A stretch of 41,604 bases of DNA from Rhodoferax sp. (GTDB lineage Bacteria; Pseudomonadota; Gammaproteobacteria; Burkholderiales; Burkholderiaceae_C), in assembly GCA_021738345.1 (NCBI GenBank), contig JAIPCE010000008.1, positions 1 to 41,604 on the forward strand. Direction: 5' to 3'. Of this stretch, positions 350-37,258 are shown in pieces; the first letter of the stretch is position 1, and every line of letters starts with the position of its first letter. The position numbers and the translations under genes are program-made. The notes under the pieces were generated by a model. The model did not search any database and was not told the origin of the DNA. It worked only from the letters and a program-made list of their open reading frames with translations.

Positions 350-609
350 ACGTGGGGTTCTAAACGACTACCTATAACCGTTTAATCTAAGTATTTCATT
401 TAAACGATCATCGGTTAAGGTCTTACTATTTACTGATTCGACGATTGAATCAATTATTGAATCTGCGTGTTCCATTTTGCGTTTCCTGTAACGCACCTGA
501 TAAGGTGCCAGCGCCGCCGGGTCAGGGTGTCCCGGTTTTCGCCAGCGGGTAATTAGTCCGTGGCTAGGCGTGGCAAAACTGTTAAGCGATTGCTACCCTT
601 CAATCAACA

Positions 610-2059: not shown

Positions 2060-2090
2060 TGGTGGAGCTGGGGAGATTTGAACTCCCGTC
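2060..2090. other. Probable attachment site (att) at the 3' end of ssrA
   Basis: The island integrase abuts the T-arm and CCA end of ssrA, a classical integration target for tyrosine recombinases. The exact crossover core cannot be set because the partner repeat would lie to the left of the window. Position and integrase type support the call; no second copy of this sequence is present here. Confidence 0.55.
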
Positions 2091-2325
2091 CGCAAGCCTT
2101 TTTCGAGCAGTTCTACATGTGTAGCCGTCTGATTTGAGTCTCGCCTTTTGCATCGCGCAGTGGCACGCTATGCAAAACGCCAGTAACCTATTTTCTTGAC
2201 CTGCCCTAAGTTACCCAGGGCAGACCCAGCCAAATGAGATTACCCCGCAGCCTGGACTACTCGGCCTTGCGGCTTCGTAACCCTTGCCCAGCCTATTGGC
2301 TTGCTGTTGCGAGGCTCACGCGCAA

Positions 2326-2358
2326 TTAAGCGGCGAGTGCGAAACGTTCGTCGTTTGC
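2326..2358 (-). other. tmRNA tag-peptide reading frame (ANDERFALAA)
   Basis: On the minus strand the codons GCA AAC GAC GAA CGT TTC GCA CTC GCC GCT TAA encode ANDERFALAA and a stop. This is the degradation tag added to nascent chains; the terminal ALAA is the recognition signal for ClpXP-type proteases. The resume codon is GCA at 2356-2358. Confidence 0.95.
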
Positions 2359-2458
2359 AGTTAGTTTTTTTCTGCTGTTTTACGAGGTGACAGAACCTCG
2401 ACATGCCCTGCTGCGCGTCCGAACCCACGTCGAAACCAGTGCAGCCCCTTGAAATTAC

Positions 2459-28381: not shown

Positions 28382-28500
28382 TGATGCGATTCAAAGTGAT
28401 GCGCCCCTCATATCTGTGGTGGCAATCCCGACCCTGGTGTCGGCGCCATCTCCCTATTTCCCAGACCAATGTGCAGACACAACACTCTGAATCGCAACCA
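28382..28500. repeat. Degenerate MITE-like element, relative of the 33696-33883 element
   Basis: TGCGATTCAAAGTGATG at 28385-28401 and its inverted counterpart at 28480-28496 match with two mismatches. The left arm is identical over 17 bases to the left end of the element at 33696. The interior is unrelated and I see no target duplication. It lies in the gap between the large TRAP subunit and the convergent terminator. Confidence 0.6.
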
Positions 28501-29888: not shown

Positions 29889-31775
29889 TCAGTTGTTTTG
29901 GGCGCTGTCGGCGAACAGGCTGGCGAATCGCCGCGTGATGGACACCTGCAGACCCGCTGCGTCAAGTCCCTGCATTTGCAGCAGCTTGCCCGGGTCACCA
30001 TGCTCCACAAACAGGTCCGGCAGACCGAGCTGCAGTACCGGCATGGCGAGACCCTGCGCAGAGAGTGCCTCTGTCACGGCGCTACCGGCTCCACCCATGA
30101 CACACGCCTCCTCCACCGTCACGATCGCCTGATGGCTGCCGGCCACCTGCAGCAACAATTCCAGATCGAGAGGTTTGGCCCAGCGCATGTCGACAACGGT
30201 GGTGTCGAGCACTTCTGCAGCCTTCAAGGCAGCGTGCAACAAAGTACCAAAAGCCAGGATGGCCACGCGACGTCCCTGCCGCCGCACCACTCCCTTGCCA
30301 AATGGCAGTCCCTCGAGGCTGGCTTGCACGGCGATTCCGGCACCTGCTCCGCGCGGATAACGCACGGCCACAGCATGGTTCTGGGCGAATGCGGTGCTGA
30401 GCAACTGGCGACACTCGTTTTCATCAGAAGGACAGGCAATGCTGATGTTGGGGATGCAGCGCAAGTAAGCAATGTCGTAAGCCCCGGCGTGGGTGGCGCC
30501 ATCGGCGCCCACCAGGCCCGCGCGGTCCAGCGCAAACACTACCGGCAGATTTTGAATTGCCACATCGTGAATCAGTTGGTCATAAGCGCGCTGCAAAAAG
30601 GTCGAATAGATCGCGACCACCGGCTTGAGCCCTTCGCAGGCGAGTCCGGCTGCGAAGGTGACCGCATGCTGCTCGGCAATGCCCACGTCAAAATAGCGAT
30701 CAGGGAAGCGTTGCTCAAACTCCACCATGCCCGAACCCTCGCGCATGGCGGGCGTGATGCCCACCAGTCTCTGGTCCTGCGCCGCCATATCGCACAACCA
30801 TTGTCCAAACACCTGGGTAAAGCTGGGTTTGGCCGGTACAGCGGGCTTTAACAGCCCCACGCTGGGGTCGAACTTGCCAGGTCCATGGTACGCCACTGGA
30901 TCAGCTTCAGCCAACTTGTAACCCTGGCCTTTTTTGGTCACCACATGGAGGAACTGTGGTCCCTTCAGCAGCTTGATGTTCTCTAGCGTGGGAATCAGTG
31001 ATTCGAGATCGTGGCCATCAATCGGACCAATATAGTTGAAGCCAAATTTCTCAAACAGCGTGGCCGGCACCACCATACCCTTGGCGTGTTCTTCGAGGCG
31101 TTTGGCGAGCTCAAAAAGGGGCGGCGCGCTCTTGAGCACCGTCTTGCCGACGTTCTTGGCCGCAGCGTAAAACCGGCCACTGAGCAACTGTGCAAAATAA
31201 CGGTTGAGTGCCCCCACCGGCGGGCTGATGCTCATGTCGTTGTCATTCAGAATCACGAGCAAATTGCAGTCCGCCACACCCGCATTGTTCAGCGCCTCAA
31301 AGGCCATGCCGGCGGTCATTGCTCCATCGCCGATGATGGCCACCGAATGCCGCTCAACACCCTGAATTTTTGCCGCTAGGGCCATGCCAAGCGCGGCAGA
31401 AATCGAGGTGCTGGAGTGCGCCGTGCCAAAGGTGTCAAATTTACTTTCAATACGCTGTGGAAACCCGCTCAGGCCGCCGAGTTGCCGCAATGTGGACATG
31501 CGATCGCGACGTCCGGTAAGAATCTTGTGCGGATAGGTCTGGTGACCTACATCCCAGACCAATCGGTCCTCTGGCGTGTTAAACACATAGTGCAATGCAA
31601 CGGTAAGTTCCACCGTACCCAGGTTGGAGCTCAGATGGCCCCCCGTTTTGGCAACGCTGTCGAGCAGGTAGGCGCGCAACTCATCGGCAAGATCATGCAA
31701 CTGGGCGCGAGGCACCTTGCGCAGATCGGCAGGGCTATGGATGGTGTGCAGCAAGGGTGACAATTGTTTCGGCAT
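29889..31775 (-). CDS. dxs: 1-deoxy-D-xylulose-5-phosphate synthase
   Basis: DXS joins pyruvate and glyceraldehyde 3-phosphate with thiamine diphosphate, the first step of the MEP isoprenoid route. The 628-residue length is normal. Visible signatures are His47 in [11 protein letters not shown], the ThDP motif [18 protein letters not shown] (about residues 149-166), [17 protein letters not shown], and in the second half [16 protein letters not shown] chose the ATG at 31773-31775 ([19 protein letters not shown]); the longer frame to 31979 runs into ispA. No strong Shine-Dalgarno is seen. ispA lies upstream on the same strand, 43 bases away; together with ispH in this window, three isoprenoid genes are present. 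Confidence 0.96.
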
Positions 31776-31803
31776 ACGCAGTATGAATAAGTGCTGCTTT
31801 CGG

Positions 31804-31813
31804 ATCTGACCCC
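31804..31813. repeat. Half-motif of the oxoprolinase palindromic element
   Basis: ATCTGACCCC matches 10 bases of the right arm of the inverted repeat at 18815-18831. It sits in the 43-base gap between ispA and dxs, and may be a relic. A match of 10 bases can also arise by chance. Confidence 0.3.
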
Positions 31814-31818
31814 GAAGC

Positions 31819-32742
31819 TTAGCAGGAGCGGTTAACCACCATATCCGCCAGCGCCCGCAAGGCATGTGCGTGGGTAAGGCCGCTGGCATCGAGCGCGTCC
31901 AGGGCCTCGCGCAACAGCGACTGTGCATAGTCTCGGCTCGCCTGGAGCCCCAGCAACGAGACATAGGTAGGTTTGTCATTGCTGGCGTCTTTGCCGGCCG
32001 TCTTGCCCAGCGTGCTCGAGTCGGCGGTCACATCCAGAATGTCATCCACAACCTGAAACGCCAATCCGAGCGCAGCGCCAAAGGTCTTCAATGCAGTAAC
32101 AACCTGCGCGCTGGGCTCACCACAGGCCGCACCCATCATCACACTGCCCTGCAGCAGTGCGCCGGTCTTGAGCTGGTGCATTTGACGCAACTGGCATTCA
32201 GACAAGGGTTTGCCGACGCTGGCAAGGTCAATGGCCTGCCCGCCTGCCATGCCGGCACTACCGGCTGCTCTGGCCAATAGCCCACACATTCGTGCCTGAA
32301 GCGCCGGTGCCACTGTGTCATTTTGGGGCGTCAGCAACTCAAACGCGAGCGCCTGCAGCGCATCCCCCGCAAGCAGGGCACTCGCCTGACCAAACCGCAC
32401 ATGCACAGTAGGTTTCCCACGCCGCAGCACGTCGTTGTCCATGCAGGGCATGTCGTCATGCACCAGAGAGTAGGCGTGGATCAATTCGACCGCACAAGCC
32501 GCGCGCAAGGCCGCACCGTCCTCAGCATTGGCAGGTGATTCTGCAAGCGCTTCATAGGCTGCCAGAACCAGCAAAGGGCGCAACCGTTTGCCGCCATCCA
32601 GCACCGCATAGCGCATGGCATCCACCAGTTGCGCTGGCGCACCATGGTTCAATCCCGAGGGTATCTCGGCGGTCACCCACCGATCCAGTGCCCGCTCTAC
32701 CCGATCCAAATGCGTGCGGCTCCACTGCTCCAGGTCAAACAT
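31819..32742 (-). CDS. ispA: Farnesyl diphosphate synthase (short-chain polyprenyl synthase)
   Basis: IspA adds isopentenyl units to make farnesyl diphosphate, the precursor of ubiquinone side chains and undecaprenyl carriers. The 307-residue protein shows the first aspartate-rich motif in [20 protein letters not shown] (about residues 93-112) and the second in [14 protein letters not shown], plus [17 protein letters not shown]. The start at 32740-32742 ([20 protein letters not shown]) fits the family; the frame extends upstream without homology. xseB, which usually precedes ispA in this group, is not found upstream. Confidence 0.95.
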
Positions 32743-33106
32743 TGGTGCACTGGCACAGTCTAAAACGGACGTTGGGAGCATGTAAAAAGTTGGGGAGATG
32801 GCGGGCTGAACTACAGCGAAGCAGGCTATTTTAGGCGCTCTAACGAAGCCCTCTGGGGAAACCCCAGAATTGCCGACACCGTAACGCCAAACACCCTGGT
32901 CACCCCACTGGGAGAAACTCGTAACAAACGCTGAACTTTGTACTGACGGATCAAGGCGGATCACAAAAGAATCGCTGCCATTCCCACGGACAGATTTCCG
33001 AGCGCTGCGCAGGATTCGAGAAGTACCGAAGCTTCCAATCCATGCTTTGATAGGACCATAAAAAGACTTTCTTCATCTTTAGTCTTTCAAGTTTTAGGGG
33101 ACAGCC
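32743..33106. other. Gene-free stretch upstream of ispA
   Basis: I see no coding sequence with support here, and no xseB on either strand. It must contain the ispA-dxs promoter on the minus strand, but no clear -35/-10 pair stood out. It borders the decayed toxin-antitoxin locus. Confidence 0.6.
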
Positions 33107-33381
33107 ATGCGCTACTCATCGAGGTCAAGCCCATCATCTGTCTCAAAGCCAACCCTGCCGAGGTTCTGACGCAGCTCGCGGGGCAGCGTGAACCAATGTT
33201 CATCACCCAAAACGGAGAGGCCAAGGCCGTCCTGCAGGACGTCGCTTCGTTCGAAGAGACGCAAGAAAAACTGACCCTGCTAAAGCTCCTTGCGCTAGGG
33301 ACTCAAGATGTGACCGCTGGCAAGGTTAAGCCTGTGGCTGACGTCGTTGGCCGCCTCCGCGCCAAGCGCGCCTCAGTCTGA
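33107..33381 (+). pseudogene. Phd/YefM-type antitoxin, frameshifted near the N-terminus
   Basis: The antitoxin of a type II toxin-antitoxin pair would bind the toxin and repress the operon. The frame from 33115 on reads IEVKPIICLKANPAEVLTQL, then PMFITQNGEAKAVLQDVASF and ends RLRAKRASV, typical of the Phd/YefM family. The expected start, ATG at 33107 with AGGGGA five bases upstream, is in another frame: its product stops at 33167 after 20 codons. One extra base near 33120 would give MRYSS joined to EVKPI, the family N-terminus. As it stands the only in-frame ATG is 33196, which gives 61 residues lacking the DNA-binding part. A base-call error would explain the shift equally well. Confidence 0.7.
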
Positions 33382-33754
33382 TGGGTGGCACCTCTGCGAG
33401 GTTCGAAATCCACTCACCGAGGGCGCGGAGCAGGACTTTGAGGCCATCCACGACTACATCTCCGAATTCGACTGCGTCGTCAACGCCAACTATGTGCTGG
33501 ATCAGTTGATGAACGTTGCGCAGGGCGTGACGAGATTCCCGGAACGTGGTGGCTGTCCGAAGGATCTGGCCAGTCTCGGTATCAAAGAATACCGCCAGAC
33601 CTTCTTCAAGCCGTACCGCGTGGTCTACCGTGTCGCAGGCAGTAAAGTCACCATCTACCTGATTGCAGATGGGCGTCGTGAAATGCAATCCGTGCTGGGT
33701 GCGATTCAAAGTGATGTGGACTCCTATTCCCTCGCCCCAGCGGGGAGAGGGTGA
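33381..33754 (+). pseudogene. RelE/ParE-type toxin, frameshifted and with its 3' end replaced by a MITE
   Basis: The toxin partner would be a RelE/ParE-fold protein acting on translation or gyrase. The body reads LTEGAEQDFEAIHDYISEF, LDQLMNVAQGVTRFPERGG and FFKPYRVVYRV followed by IYLIADGRREMQSV, a clear match. The natural ATG at 33381 shares one base with the antitoxin stop (TGATG), but is out of frame with the body; one extra C near 33414 would join ARFEIH to LTEGAEQD. The only in-frame start without repair is a TTG at 33347 inside the antitoxin gene. From 33696 the coding sequence is MITE, giving the foreign ending GAIQSDVDSYSLAPAGRG. Confidence 0.75.
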
Positions 33755-33890
33755 GGGTGAGGGTTGATGTTTTGCATTATTGAAAGAATCCTGGACCCTG
33801 TGGCAGCCCCCCCACCCCAGCCCTCCCCCCGCTGGGGCGAGGGGGCAAAAACCGAATTGCCACATCGCTTTGAATCGCACCCATCCGTGC
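33689..33890. mobile_element. MITE with 24-bp terminal inverted repeats and 7-bp target duplication
   Basis: The element spans 33696-33883 (188 bp). Its ends, 33696-33719 (starting TGGGTGCGATTCAAAG) and 33860-33883, are inverted repeats of 24 bases with one mismatch. Inside lies a second perfect 17-bp inverted repeat, 33729-33745 and 33827-33843, in a GC-rich arm. The identical heptamer TCCGTGC flanks it on both sides (33689-33695 and 33884-33890). It has no room for a transposase, so it must have moved with an enzyme encoded elsewhere. Confidence 0.9.
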
Positions 33891-33916
33891 TTGCGCGTCG
33901 TCTCCTTGGCGGGTGA
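33884..33916 (+). pseudogene. Displaced 3' end of the toxin gene
   Basis: Read after the right-hand target duplication, the codons TCC GTG CTT GCG CGT CGT CTC CTT GGC GGG TGA give SVLARRLLGG and a stop. Joined directly to the toxin body at the left duplication, this restores MQSVLARRLLGG, a usual ending for this toxin family. It shows where the gene ended before the MITE arrived. Confidence 0.85.
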
Positions 33917-34247
33917 TTCAGCGCCACCTGCAAGGCTTGGCGCAGGGAATTCGACCAGCGTCAGATCTTCAAGTCACGCGTATTTCCGAAGCGCACAAGC
34001 GCAATCGCCGCAATTATTGACATCCGCTCAATGATCCTGGATTTCTCACTTGACCGCTTACTTTTGTTAGTAACTCCGCATGAATACTCACTTTATTGGC
34101 CTTCAACCTAAGTGGGGTTGTGGGTGCTCTCCACATCCAGCCCCACATAAAAAAATGTGCTTGAAAAAACCAAATGATATTGGGTGATTCGAAATCCCCT
34201 CGTAGAGAGGTCGATTTATGTGGGGTTGGGAAAGCTTTTGAGCGAAA
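33917..34247. other. Gene-free stretch between the toxin remnant and tRNA-Ser
   Basis: No supported gene on either strand. It holds one imperfect inverted repeat (34137-34229, separate entry). Short ORFs here lack homology that I recognise. Confidence 0.6.
34137..34229. repeat. Imperfect inverted repeat, possible small palindromic element
   Basis: CCAGCCCCACATAAA (34137-34151) is the reverse complement of 34215-34229 with one mismatch, over a 63-base AT-rich interval. This resembles the ends of a small non-autonomous element, but no target duplication is seen. A partial third copy of the GTGGGGTTG motif occurs near 34112. Confidence 0.4.
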
Positions 34248-34270
34248 AAAACCCCGATAAACGGGGTTTT
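34248..34270 (-). terminator. Rho-independent terminator after tRNA-Ser
   Basis: AAAACCCCG and CGGGGTTTT form a nine-pair stem around ATAAA, followed on the minus strand by a T run. It directly abuts the encoded CCA end of the tRNA gene. Confidence 0.85.
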
Positions 34271-34359
34271 GGCGGAGCGGGTGGGATTCGAACCCACGGA
34301 AGGGTTGCCCCTTCGCTTGATTTCGAGTCAAGTACATTCGACCACTCTGCCACCGCTCC
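34270..34359 (-). tRNA. tRNA-Ser, anticodon CGA
   Basis: On the minus strand the RNA begins GGAGCGGTGGCAGAGTGG and ends GGGTTCGAATCCCACCCGC with an encoded CCA. The acceptor stem GGAGCGG pairs with CCGCTCC. The anticodon stem-loop CTTGACTCGAAATCAAG puts CGA at 34323-34325, reading UCG codons. The long variable arm (GCGAAGGGGCAACCCTTC) is the class II hallmark of serine tRNAs. It lies just downstream of serS, whose product charges it. Confidence 0.96.
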
Positions 34360-34429
34360 TTCAATTACAGTGTCTGGACGAAGGCAGCATTCTAGCAGGC
34401 TCGAAAGCCTGCGATTACGGTCTTGACTG

Positions 34430-35782
<1,353 letters not shown>

Positions 35783-35847
35783 TCAGTACCTATTTTCGCT
35801 GATGTCGAAACCAGACAACGGGCTTGTAAAGGTGCTGAGACCTTGAT

Positions 35848-35889
35848 CCTAAGTCCTAAGTCCTCAGACCTCAGACCTCAGACCTCAGT
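35848..35889. repeat. Heptanucleotide tandem repeat at the ispH 3' end
   Basis: Six consecutive 7-base units: CCTAAGT twice, CCTCAGA three times and CCTCAGT once. The ispH stop codon (35871-35873) lies inside the tract. Unit gain or loss by slippage would leave the protein almost unchanged except when it hits the last three units. No function is evident. Confidence 0.8.
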
Positions 35890-36806
35890 CCCTTGGGGAG
35901 GGGAAACTTCACGGTCTCTTCTATGCCGTTAAGCTTGCGCACCGACACGGCACCAAGCGCCTTGATACGTTCGATTACTGCAGTTACAAGCACCTCTGGC
36001 GCAGAGGCACCGGCCGTAAGCCCCACCCTTTGCCGGCCCAAAAACCAATCGGGCTGTAATTCTGCGGCGTTATCGACCATATAACTCGCTGTACCGAGCT
36101 TGCGCGCCAGTTCGCGCAGGCGGTTGCTATTGGAGCTGGTGGGGCTGCCGACCACAATCACCACATCGACTTGCGAACTCAGCAACTTGACCGCATCCTG
36201 CCGATTTTGCGTGGCATAGCAAATATCTTGCTGCTTCGGCTCGCGTACTTTCGGAAAACGTACCTTGACGGCGGCAGCGATGTCGGCGGCATCGTCCACG
36301 CTCAACGTCGTCTGGGTCACAACCGCGAGCTTTTCGGTCTGCAGCGGTCGAAGCCGGGCCACGTCCACCACGTCTTCCACCAGATGAATTCCACCGTCGA
36401 GCTGGCCCATCGTGCCTTCGACCTCGGGATGACCCTTGTGGCCGATCATGATGAATTCGAAACCTTCCTTGTGCAGCTTGGCGACCTCGACATGCACCTT
36501 GGTGACTAAAGGACAAGTGGCATCAAACACCCGGAAACCGCGCTGCTCAGCTTCACGTTCGACTGACTTCGGTACCCCATGGGCCGAAAAAACGAGGGTT
36601 GCTCCTGCAGGAACATCGTTGAGCTCTTCGATGAAGATGGCGCCTTTTGCCTTGAGGTCGTTGACCACATAGGTGTTGTGCACGATTTCGTGGCGCACAT
36701 ACACCGGTGACCCAAATTTTTGCAACGCCCGCTCCACAATCTCGATGGCCCGGTCCACCCCGGCGCAAAACCCACGGGGTTCGGCCAAAACAATTTCCTG
36801 CGTCAT
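35871..36806 (-). CDS. ispH: 4-hydroxy-3-methylbut-2-enyl diphosphate reductase
   Basis: IspH (LytB) makes isopentenyl and dimethylallyl diphosphate, the last MEP step, using an iron-sulfur cluster. The 311-residue protein has all three cluster cysteines: Cys14 in [10 protein letters not shown], Cys98 in [11 protein letters not shown] and Cys196 in QQDICYATQ. The substrate-binding His43, His76 and His126 and the catalytic Glu128 (GHPEVEG) are visible. Its start overlaps the fkpB stop by 4 bases, so the two are translationally coupled. The stop is inside a heptamer repeat. Confidence 0.97.
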
Positions 36807-37258
36807 AGGATCCCAATCACCTGTACTTCAAAAGTCACCGCCTGTCCCGCCAGCGGGTGGTTGAAGTCAAACAGCACAGCGCCGTCTTCGGCCAACTGCA
36901 CCACCACGCCGGCAAACTTCCCGTGTCCATCGGGCGTGGGGAACTGGACGGCATCGCCCACACGGTAGGTTTCCGTGGGATCGCCCATCTGCTGCAACAC
37001 CTTGCGCGCCAGCCACTGCTGCATGGCCGGATTACGTTCGCCAAACGCGGTACCAGGCGGCAAGTCAAAACTGCGGTGGGCGCCCTCTTCGAGCCCGAAC
37101 AAACACTGCTCCACGGCAGGCGAGAGCTCGCCAGTGCCCAGGCTGAGCGTAGCGGGTTTGCCACCAAAGGTGTTGATGACATCTCCGGCAGGGCCACTTA
37201 AGCGGTAATGCAGGGTCAAAAAGGATGCCGGCTGGACCCGGGTGATCGTTGTGGTCAT
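36803..37258 (-). CDS. fkpB: FKBP-type peptidyl-prolyl isomerase, SlpA/FkpB type
   Basis: A cytoplasmic proline isomerase and chaperone. The 151-residue protein has the split FKBP core typical of SlpA/Sly[16 protein letters not shown], then [24 protein letters not shown], an insert-in-flap domain, and the closing [20 protein letters not shown]. No signal peptide. The fkpB-ispH pair is conserved across many proteobacteria, and here the stop and start overlap. It faces radC across a 65-base divergent promoter region. Confidence 0.94.

What the first reader, a model, noticed from the sequence alone, without database searches (positions are those of the whole stretch)
33689..33916. A MITE with a clean target duplication interrupts a RelE-type toxin and the empty site can be read directly
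The 188-bp element (33696-33883) has 24-bp terminal inverted repeats with one mismatch, an inner perfect 17-bp inverted repeat and an identical 7-base flank TCCGTGC on each side. Deleting the element plus one duplication restores MQSVLARRLLGG and a stop, a normal toxin ending. The insertion has swapped seven residues for GAIQSDVDSYSLAPAGRG without losing the frame. This is a non-autonomous element remodelling a toxin C-terminus.
Basis: seen in the sequence. Interest (0 to 1): 0.8.

Follow-up and report, generated by a model that had tools for sequence, protein, structure and literature searches.

The report
Small jumping element in toxin gene
A short non-coding jumping element, one of dozens of copies in this bacterium and matched by its ends to a known transposase family found in related bacteria, landed in the last codons of a toxin gene that also seems to be broken near its start, so it is a well-documented but ordinary insertion.

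Summary
The insertion is real; its borders need correcting. The genome has at least 40 places of this size class, plus 74-131 bp relatives. 22 of 30 copies show a 9-bp duplication with at most one mismatch (shifted controls 0-1 of 29-30). In 9 of 10 toxin relatives the flanks meet with exactly 9 bp overlap, well supported in five. Transposases with matching ends exist: one element in Gallionella and one in a genome of the same order combine an ISKra4-family transposase, GGGTGCGATTCAAA(G/C)TGATGTGG ends and 9-bp duplications, with the two-ORF layout of the ISMich2 group. None was found in the window's own draft assembly. 'Remodelling a toxin' is not supported: the starts of antitoxin and toxin lie in a different frame from their bodies, so the operon looks decayed (or misassembled), though one homologue shares the window's extended frame. 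The tail swap removes a conserved C-terminus. This is a new MITE of a known kind; transposase-free, gene-carrying elements with nearly the same ends in a same-genus genome are the more interesting side-finding.

The parts
33697..33882 (.). MITE, 186 bp, almost one long hairpin; too short for a transposase gene
33697..33719 (+). left terminal inverted repeat, 23 bp
   Evidence: identical to the left end of the ISKra4-family element in L162
33860..33882 (-). right terminal inverted repeat, 23 bp, one mismatch to the left one
33688..33696 (.). target duplication, left copy ATCCGTGCT
   Evidence: 9-bp overlap of flanks in relatives
33883..33891 (.). target duplication, right copy ATCCGTGCT
33729..33745 (.). 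inner perfect 17-bp inverted repeat, left arm
33827..33843 (.). inner perfect 17-bp inverted repeat, right arm
33347..33754 (+). toxin reading frame as it stands (PF05016 ParE_toxin, residues 23-112); last 18 codons and stop lie in the element; the first ~10 codons of most homologues match another frame
33107..33381 (+). Phd/YefM antitoxin remains; first ~6 codons out of frame with the rest
33892..33916 (+). stranded former 3' end of the toxin gene
   Evidence: matches the uninterrupted 3' ends of relatives, best in L050 and L051; L050 at E = 1.1 only

Best explanation
A non-autonomous ISKra4-family MITE, most like the ISMich2 group (Mutator-like DDE transposases), was mobilised in trans by a transposase that recognises GGGTGCGATTCAAAGTGATGTGG ends. 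It inserted into the last eight or so codons of a RelE/ParE toxin gene, making a 9-bp duplication. In the reading frame it removes a conserved seven-residue C-terminus and supplies 18 residues and a stop from its own TIR and stem. The host operon is most likely a decayed toxin-antitoxin pair, so the insertion is tolerated, not adaptive. Shown: element, ends, duplication, copies, uninterrupted relatives, transposases with matching ends elsewhere. Inferred: that such a transposase moved it here, that the operon is dead, and the order of events.
For: At least 40 genome places match, 39 besides the window. 22 of 30 copies have a duplication of at most 1 mismatch, controls 0-1 of 29-30. In 9 of 10 toxin relatives the flanks overlap by exactly 9 bp, the tenth (L052) not placed. 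Elements with these ends and an ISKra4-type transposase: L162 Gallionella, 1409 bp, duplication 8 of 9, NF033572; L220, 65% identical transposase, 1421 bp, perfect duplication CGTTGTGGC; L221-L223 end pairs without a matching duplication. Two ORFs in -1 register meeting at an A8 run in L162, L220 and L223 fit the ISMich2 group, and prokaryotic Mutator-like elements make 8- or 9-bp duplications with 18-39 bp ends (PMC3942029, passages). Frame breaks near both starts.
Against: No transposase with these ends was found in the window's own genome: 0 matches to the L162 transposase; its one full-length ISKra4 match (L031) has other ends. That assembly is a draft in 346 contigs at 90.8% completeness. 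Only 10 of 399 order genomes carry an L162-like transposase. The L162 score (190 bits) is below NF033572's cut-off of 205. 8 of 30 copies lack a recognisable duplication. ISMich2 membership rests on layout, not on a tree. Decay of the operon rests on one assembly, and homologue P0001 shares the extended frame. None of ten relatives' loci (up to 1.5 kb of flank) shows the window's neighbourhood.
Confidence: 0.83

Rival explanations
1. The insertion remodelled a working toxin: the protein with the new 18-residue tail is made, perhaps from an upstream start, and has changed activity or antitoxin affinity.
For: The Pfam toxin domain (residues 23-112) is untouched and the frame runs into the element without a break. 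The best homologue, P0001 (126 aa), aligns with the window in the domain frame from its residue 7, across the start region.
Against: In six of eight homologues the first ten residues match another frame; the antitoxin start is out of frame too; the lost ending is kept in some form in all 120 listed homologues and none has the new tail.
Confidence: 0.1
2. The element is mobilised by the ISKra4-family transposase that the own genome does hold (C91, L031).
For: It is the only full-length ISKra4 match in the genome; its right end begins GAGAGCGATCCAAA, sharing 11 of 14 positions with GGGTGCGATTCAAA (read by eye).
Against: The inner half of the ends differs, no 9-bp duplication is evident at L031 by eye, and elements elsewhere match the whole 23 bp.
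Confidence: 0.07
3. REP/BIME-like hairpins or Tn3-derived miniature elements (TIMEs) rather than an IS-derived MITE.
For: Strong GC-rich inner hairpin.
Against: Defined 23-bp ends, 9-bp duplications, transposase elements with the same ends. REPs make no such duplication and Tn3-type elements make 5 bp (both recalled).
Confidence: 0.01

Closest known systems
ISKra4 family, ISMich2 group (p-MULT 4; PMC3942029, passages seen)
   Same: Nearly or fully the same ends in elements coding an ISKra4-type transposase; 9-bp duplications; two ORFs meeting at an A8 run in three of them
   Different: The element has no transposase; no MITE of this group was seen in what searches listed; placement in the group not tested by a tree
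Rickettsia palindromic elements (PMC10969869, passages seen)
   Same: Small repeated element that can add element-coded residues to a host protein
   Different: Here the element ends the frame instead of sitting inside it; one clear case; target looks dead; 9-bp duplication
Mobile insertion cassettes (recalled; search listing only)
   Same: Elements L100 and L103, with nearly the same ends, carry genes but no transposase
   Different: ISKra4/ISMich2-type ends; seen in a same-genus genome, not in the window's

Membership tests
MITE | terminal inverted repeats | tested here: met
   23 bp, one mismatch
MITE | target-site duplication | tested here: met
   9 bp exact here; at most 1 mismatch in 22 of 30 copies
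MITE | short, no transposase gene | tested here: met
   186 bp, at most 62 codons
MITE | many dispersed copies | tested here: met
   at least 40 places; 181 TIR hits
ISKra4-family MITE | ends shared with an ISKra4-family element | tested here: met
   L162 left end and L220 right end identical over 23 bp to the MITE consensus; L162 transposase NF033572 6.1e-56, 190 bits against a cut-off of 205, downstream ORF alone
ISKra4-family MITE | 8- or 9-bp duplication, 18-39 bp ends | tested here: met
   criterion from PMC3942029
ISMich2 group | transposase in two ORFs in -1 register | tested here: met
   L162, L220, L223 of five elements examined; L221 and L222 not clearly so
ISMich2 group | transposase branches within the group | not tested
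   no tree built
ISKra4-family MITE | moved in trans by that transposase | not testable with these tools
   needs a transposition assay; no such transposase found in G000
RelE/ParE toxin | toxin domain | tested here: met
   PF05016 4.1e-11; NCBIfam RelE_StbE only below cut-off
RelE/ParE toxin | continuous frame from the usual start codon | tested here: not met
   start and domain in different frames against six of eight homologues; P0001 differs
Tn3-derived TIME | 5-bp duplication (recalled) | tested here: not met
   9 bp

The most novel reading that the evidence does not exclude
ISMich2-type ends serve in freshwater betaproteobacteria as a general, transposase-free carrier system. One end sequence mobilises bare hairpins of 74-190 bp, gene-carrying cassettes of about 1.4-1.6 kb with different passengers, and can append element-coded tails to host proteins, all driven in trans by rare ISKra4 elements that come and go.
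Probability: 0.25. Interest if true: 0.5.

Novelty: new member of a known kind. Interest (0 to 1): 0.3.

Why it matters
It ties an abundant, apparently undescribed MITE family to a named transposase group by ends and duplication, and corrects a reading in which a probably dead gene looks remodelled. The patchy spread (20-base end pattern in 6 of 103 genus genomes, the own one included) and the gene-carrying relatives make transposase-in-trans mobilisation by ISKra4 elements testable.

Tried and rejected
Rejected: the 7-bp duplication and 188-bp borders. Rejected: Rfam microRNA matches below gathering score, taken as hairpin artefacts. L150 (2837 bp, PF21804 transposase, perfect duplication) looked like an autonomous partner, but inner inverted repeats near its ends (seen by eye) suggest another IS nested in a roughly 130-bp copy; it is not used as the partner. 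The own ISKra4 copy L031 was rejected as partner because its ends differ. ISKra4 loci of other same-genus genomes (L042-L048) hold no such ends within three mismatches. ORFs running into copies: of 10 given to Pfam, one weak match below cut-off (L020), so recurrent tail-making is not shown; 8 of the 18 ORFs listed, the window's among them, were not in that call. Identities from unoriented copies were discarded and redone. Plasmid search: three Azospirillum records with partial matches only.

Full report
What is there. The 186-bp element occupies 33697-33882. It is flanked by a perfect 9-bp direct repeat, ATCCGTGCT, at 33688-33696 and 33883-33891, the only two places of that 9-mer in the window. 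Its 23-bp ends differ at one position, and an inner perfect 17-bp inverted repeat lies at 33729 and 33827. RNA folding draws almost the whole element as one hairpin.

It is a family. The window's genome (G000, 4.87 Mb in 346 contigs, 90.8% complete) holds at least 40 places of this size class, counting the window (40 of 109 candidates were scored). The 15-base end occurs 181 times at up to two mismatches, against 4 for the reversed pattern. Shorter relatives of 74-131 bp share the ends and, by eye, parts of the stem. Thirty-three loci were examined for the large class; one (L024) gave no end pair in the size limits, leaving 32. Two lacked a full 9-bp flank, leaving 30. Of these 30, the window included, 10 have an exact 9-bp duplication, 12 have one mismatch, and 8 have five or more mismatches. 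Shifted controls gave 0-1 of 29-30. The 32 oriented copies have a median pairwise identity of 90%; the window copy is 93.6% identical to the consensus.

The empty site. Blastn aligned relative L050 to both sides of the insertion, the right side at E = 1.1 only. Placing each flank separately on the ten best same-genus toxin loci (of 27 rows besides the own) gave a 9-bp overlap of the two flanks in 9 of 10; in L052 the right flank was not placed. The right-flank match clearly beat the next best position in L050, L051 and L054, narrowly in L056 and L057, and not convincingly in the other four, two of them ties. These loci do not share the window's neighbourhood (no hits to 31701-33080 or 33931-36900), so they show the uninterrupted gene, not the same chromosomal site.

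The transposase. Of these, 44 have paired ends (second end within three mismatches, within 7 kb) and 56 do not; 24 have paired ends and a 9-bp duplication of at most one mismatch, against 0 at six shifted positions. L162 (Gallionella sp. S40-4, JANLIB010000237.1) is a 1409-bp element with an ISKra4-family transposase: NF033572, 6.1e-56, for the downstream ORF alone and below the curated cut-off; its duplication matches at 8 of 9 positions. Its protein found relatives in 10 of 399 genomes of the order, none in G000. L220 (65% identical transposase) is 1421 bp with a perfect duplication, CGTTGTGGC. L221, L222 and L223 have end pairs at 1415-1447 bp without a matching duplication, the ends of L223 differing in their inner half. 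L224 and L225 show one end within one mismatch; of the further fragments some show one end within two to four mismatches and some none. L162's left end and L220's right end equal the MITE consensus over all 23 bp. In L162, L220 and L223 two ORFs meet at an A8 run in -1 register, the layout that PMC3942029 describes for the ISMich2 group; the same paper gives 8- or 9-bp duplications and 18-39 bp ends for these transposases (passages only). In the genus, ISKra4 matches were found in 5 of 100 genomes, own included; the loci other than L031 carried no such ends within three mismatches. L031 has different ends.

What it does to the gene. The toxin frame keeps the whole PF05016 domain (residues 23-112) and runs 18 codons into the element. 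All 120 listed homologues of 3180 keep the ending lost here in some form, and none of the 120 has the element's tail. Eight homologues were compared with the window piecewise. In seven, residues 12-106 match one frame; in six of these, residues 1-10 match 33381-33410 in another frame (E 0.016-0.056), while P0003 gave no such separate match. The eighth, P0001, matches from residue 7 to 119 in the domain frame, start region included; so a protein with a similarly extended frame is predicted elsewhere, and an upstream start cannot be excluded. The antitoxin's start is out of frame with its body against relative L051; for L050 only residues 6 onward matched. Neighbouring frames of 696, 440 and 311 aa (by recall of their look dxs, serS, ispH; not tested) are open, which argues against a generally poor assembly but does not exclude local errors. 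I read this as a decayed operon that tolerated the insertion. The order of events is unknown.

Spread and relatives. In the genus, the 20-base end pattern at up to one mismatch is in 6 of 103 genomes, own included, and 104 of its 120 hits are in G000. L106 (G076) holds 145 bp of the same MITE at 91% at a contig end. In G046 nearly the same ends bound two larger elements with different passenger genes and no transposase seen. L100 is 1584 bp, with a duplication of one mismatch and a 206-aa ORF, lipoprotein-like by eye, that has 7 hits in the protein search (the first identical to it). L103 is 1362 bp, with a perfect duplication and a 144-aa ORF, exported-looking by eye. The 206-aa ORF and a 123-aa piece of the other matched no Pfam or NCBIfam family at E 0.01.

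Literature. What searches listed shows no paper describing an ISKra4/ISMich2-type MITE or a Rhodoferax MITE; one search showed 15 of 348 papers. Four papers hold both 'ISKra4' and 'MITE'; I saw only their listing, and their titles concern resistance surveys and a general IS survey. The library lacks most subscription papers. That MITEs make in-frame fusions is known (PMC10969869, passages), so the tail itself is not a new principle.

Noticed in passing
window 33107-33412: Antitoxin and toxin each have their first codons in a different frame from the rest; a decayed operon or two assembly errors.
   Followed up: partly
window 28382-28499: A second, degenerate pair of similar ends (2 mismatches each, 118 bp overall) without a 9-bp duplication; only weakly above chance.
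   Followed up: partly
L100:1001-2584, L103:1157-2518, L101, L107, L108: Transposase-free elements with nearly the same 23-bp ends, carrying different genes, or end fragments sharing their backbone, in two same-genus genomes.
   Followed up: partly
L123:3209-7945: Left end of the same backbone and a matching right-end segment 4.6 kb further on at a contig end, with several ORFs between; no transposase seen by eye among ORFs of 120 aa or more.
   Followed up: partly
L150:2085-4921: PF21804 transposase with its own inner inverted repeats, apparently nested in a copy of about 130 bp.
   Followed up: partly
L031:1286-2596: ISKra4 transposase in the own genome with ends GAGAGCGATC..., related to but distinct from the MITE ends.
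   Followed up: partly
L207:1696-2194: 499-bp element with these ends and a one-mismatch duplication in the named strain Rhodoferax antarcticus ANT.BR.
   Followed up: no
L034, L040 (G038); Azospirillum plasmid hits H1-H3: The GC-rich inner stem, without the ends, matches repeats in other bacteria: 5 of 40 relatives (pieces of 34-43 bp) and three plasmids; unexplained.
   Followed up: no
L103:2485-2919 (-): A neighbouring frame, esterase-like by eye, ends in GAIQSDVAFG, an element-derived tail like the one here.
   Followed up: no
window 2060-2448 (-), 495-574 (-): tmRNA gene and an int-alpA RNA match.
   Followed up: no
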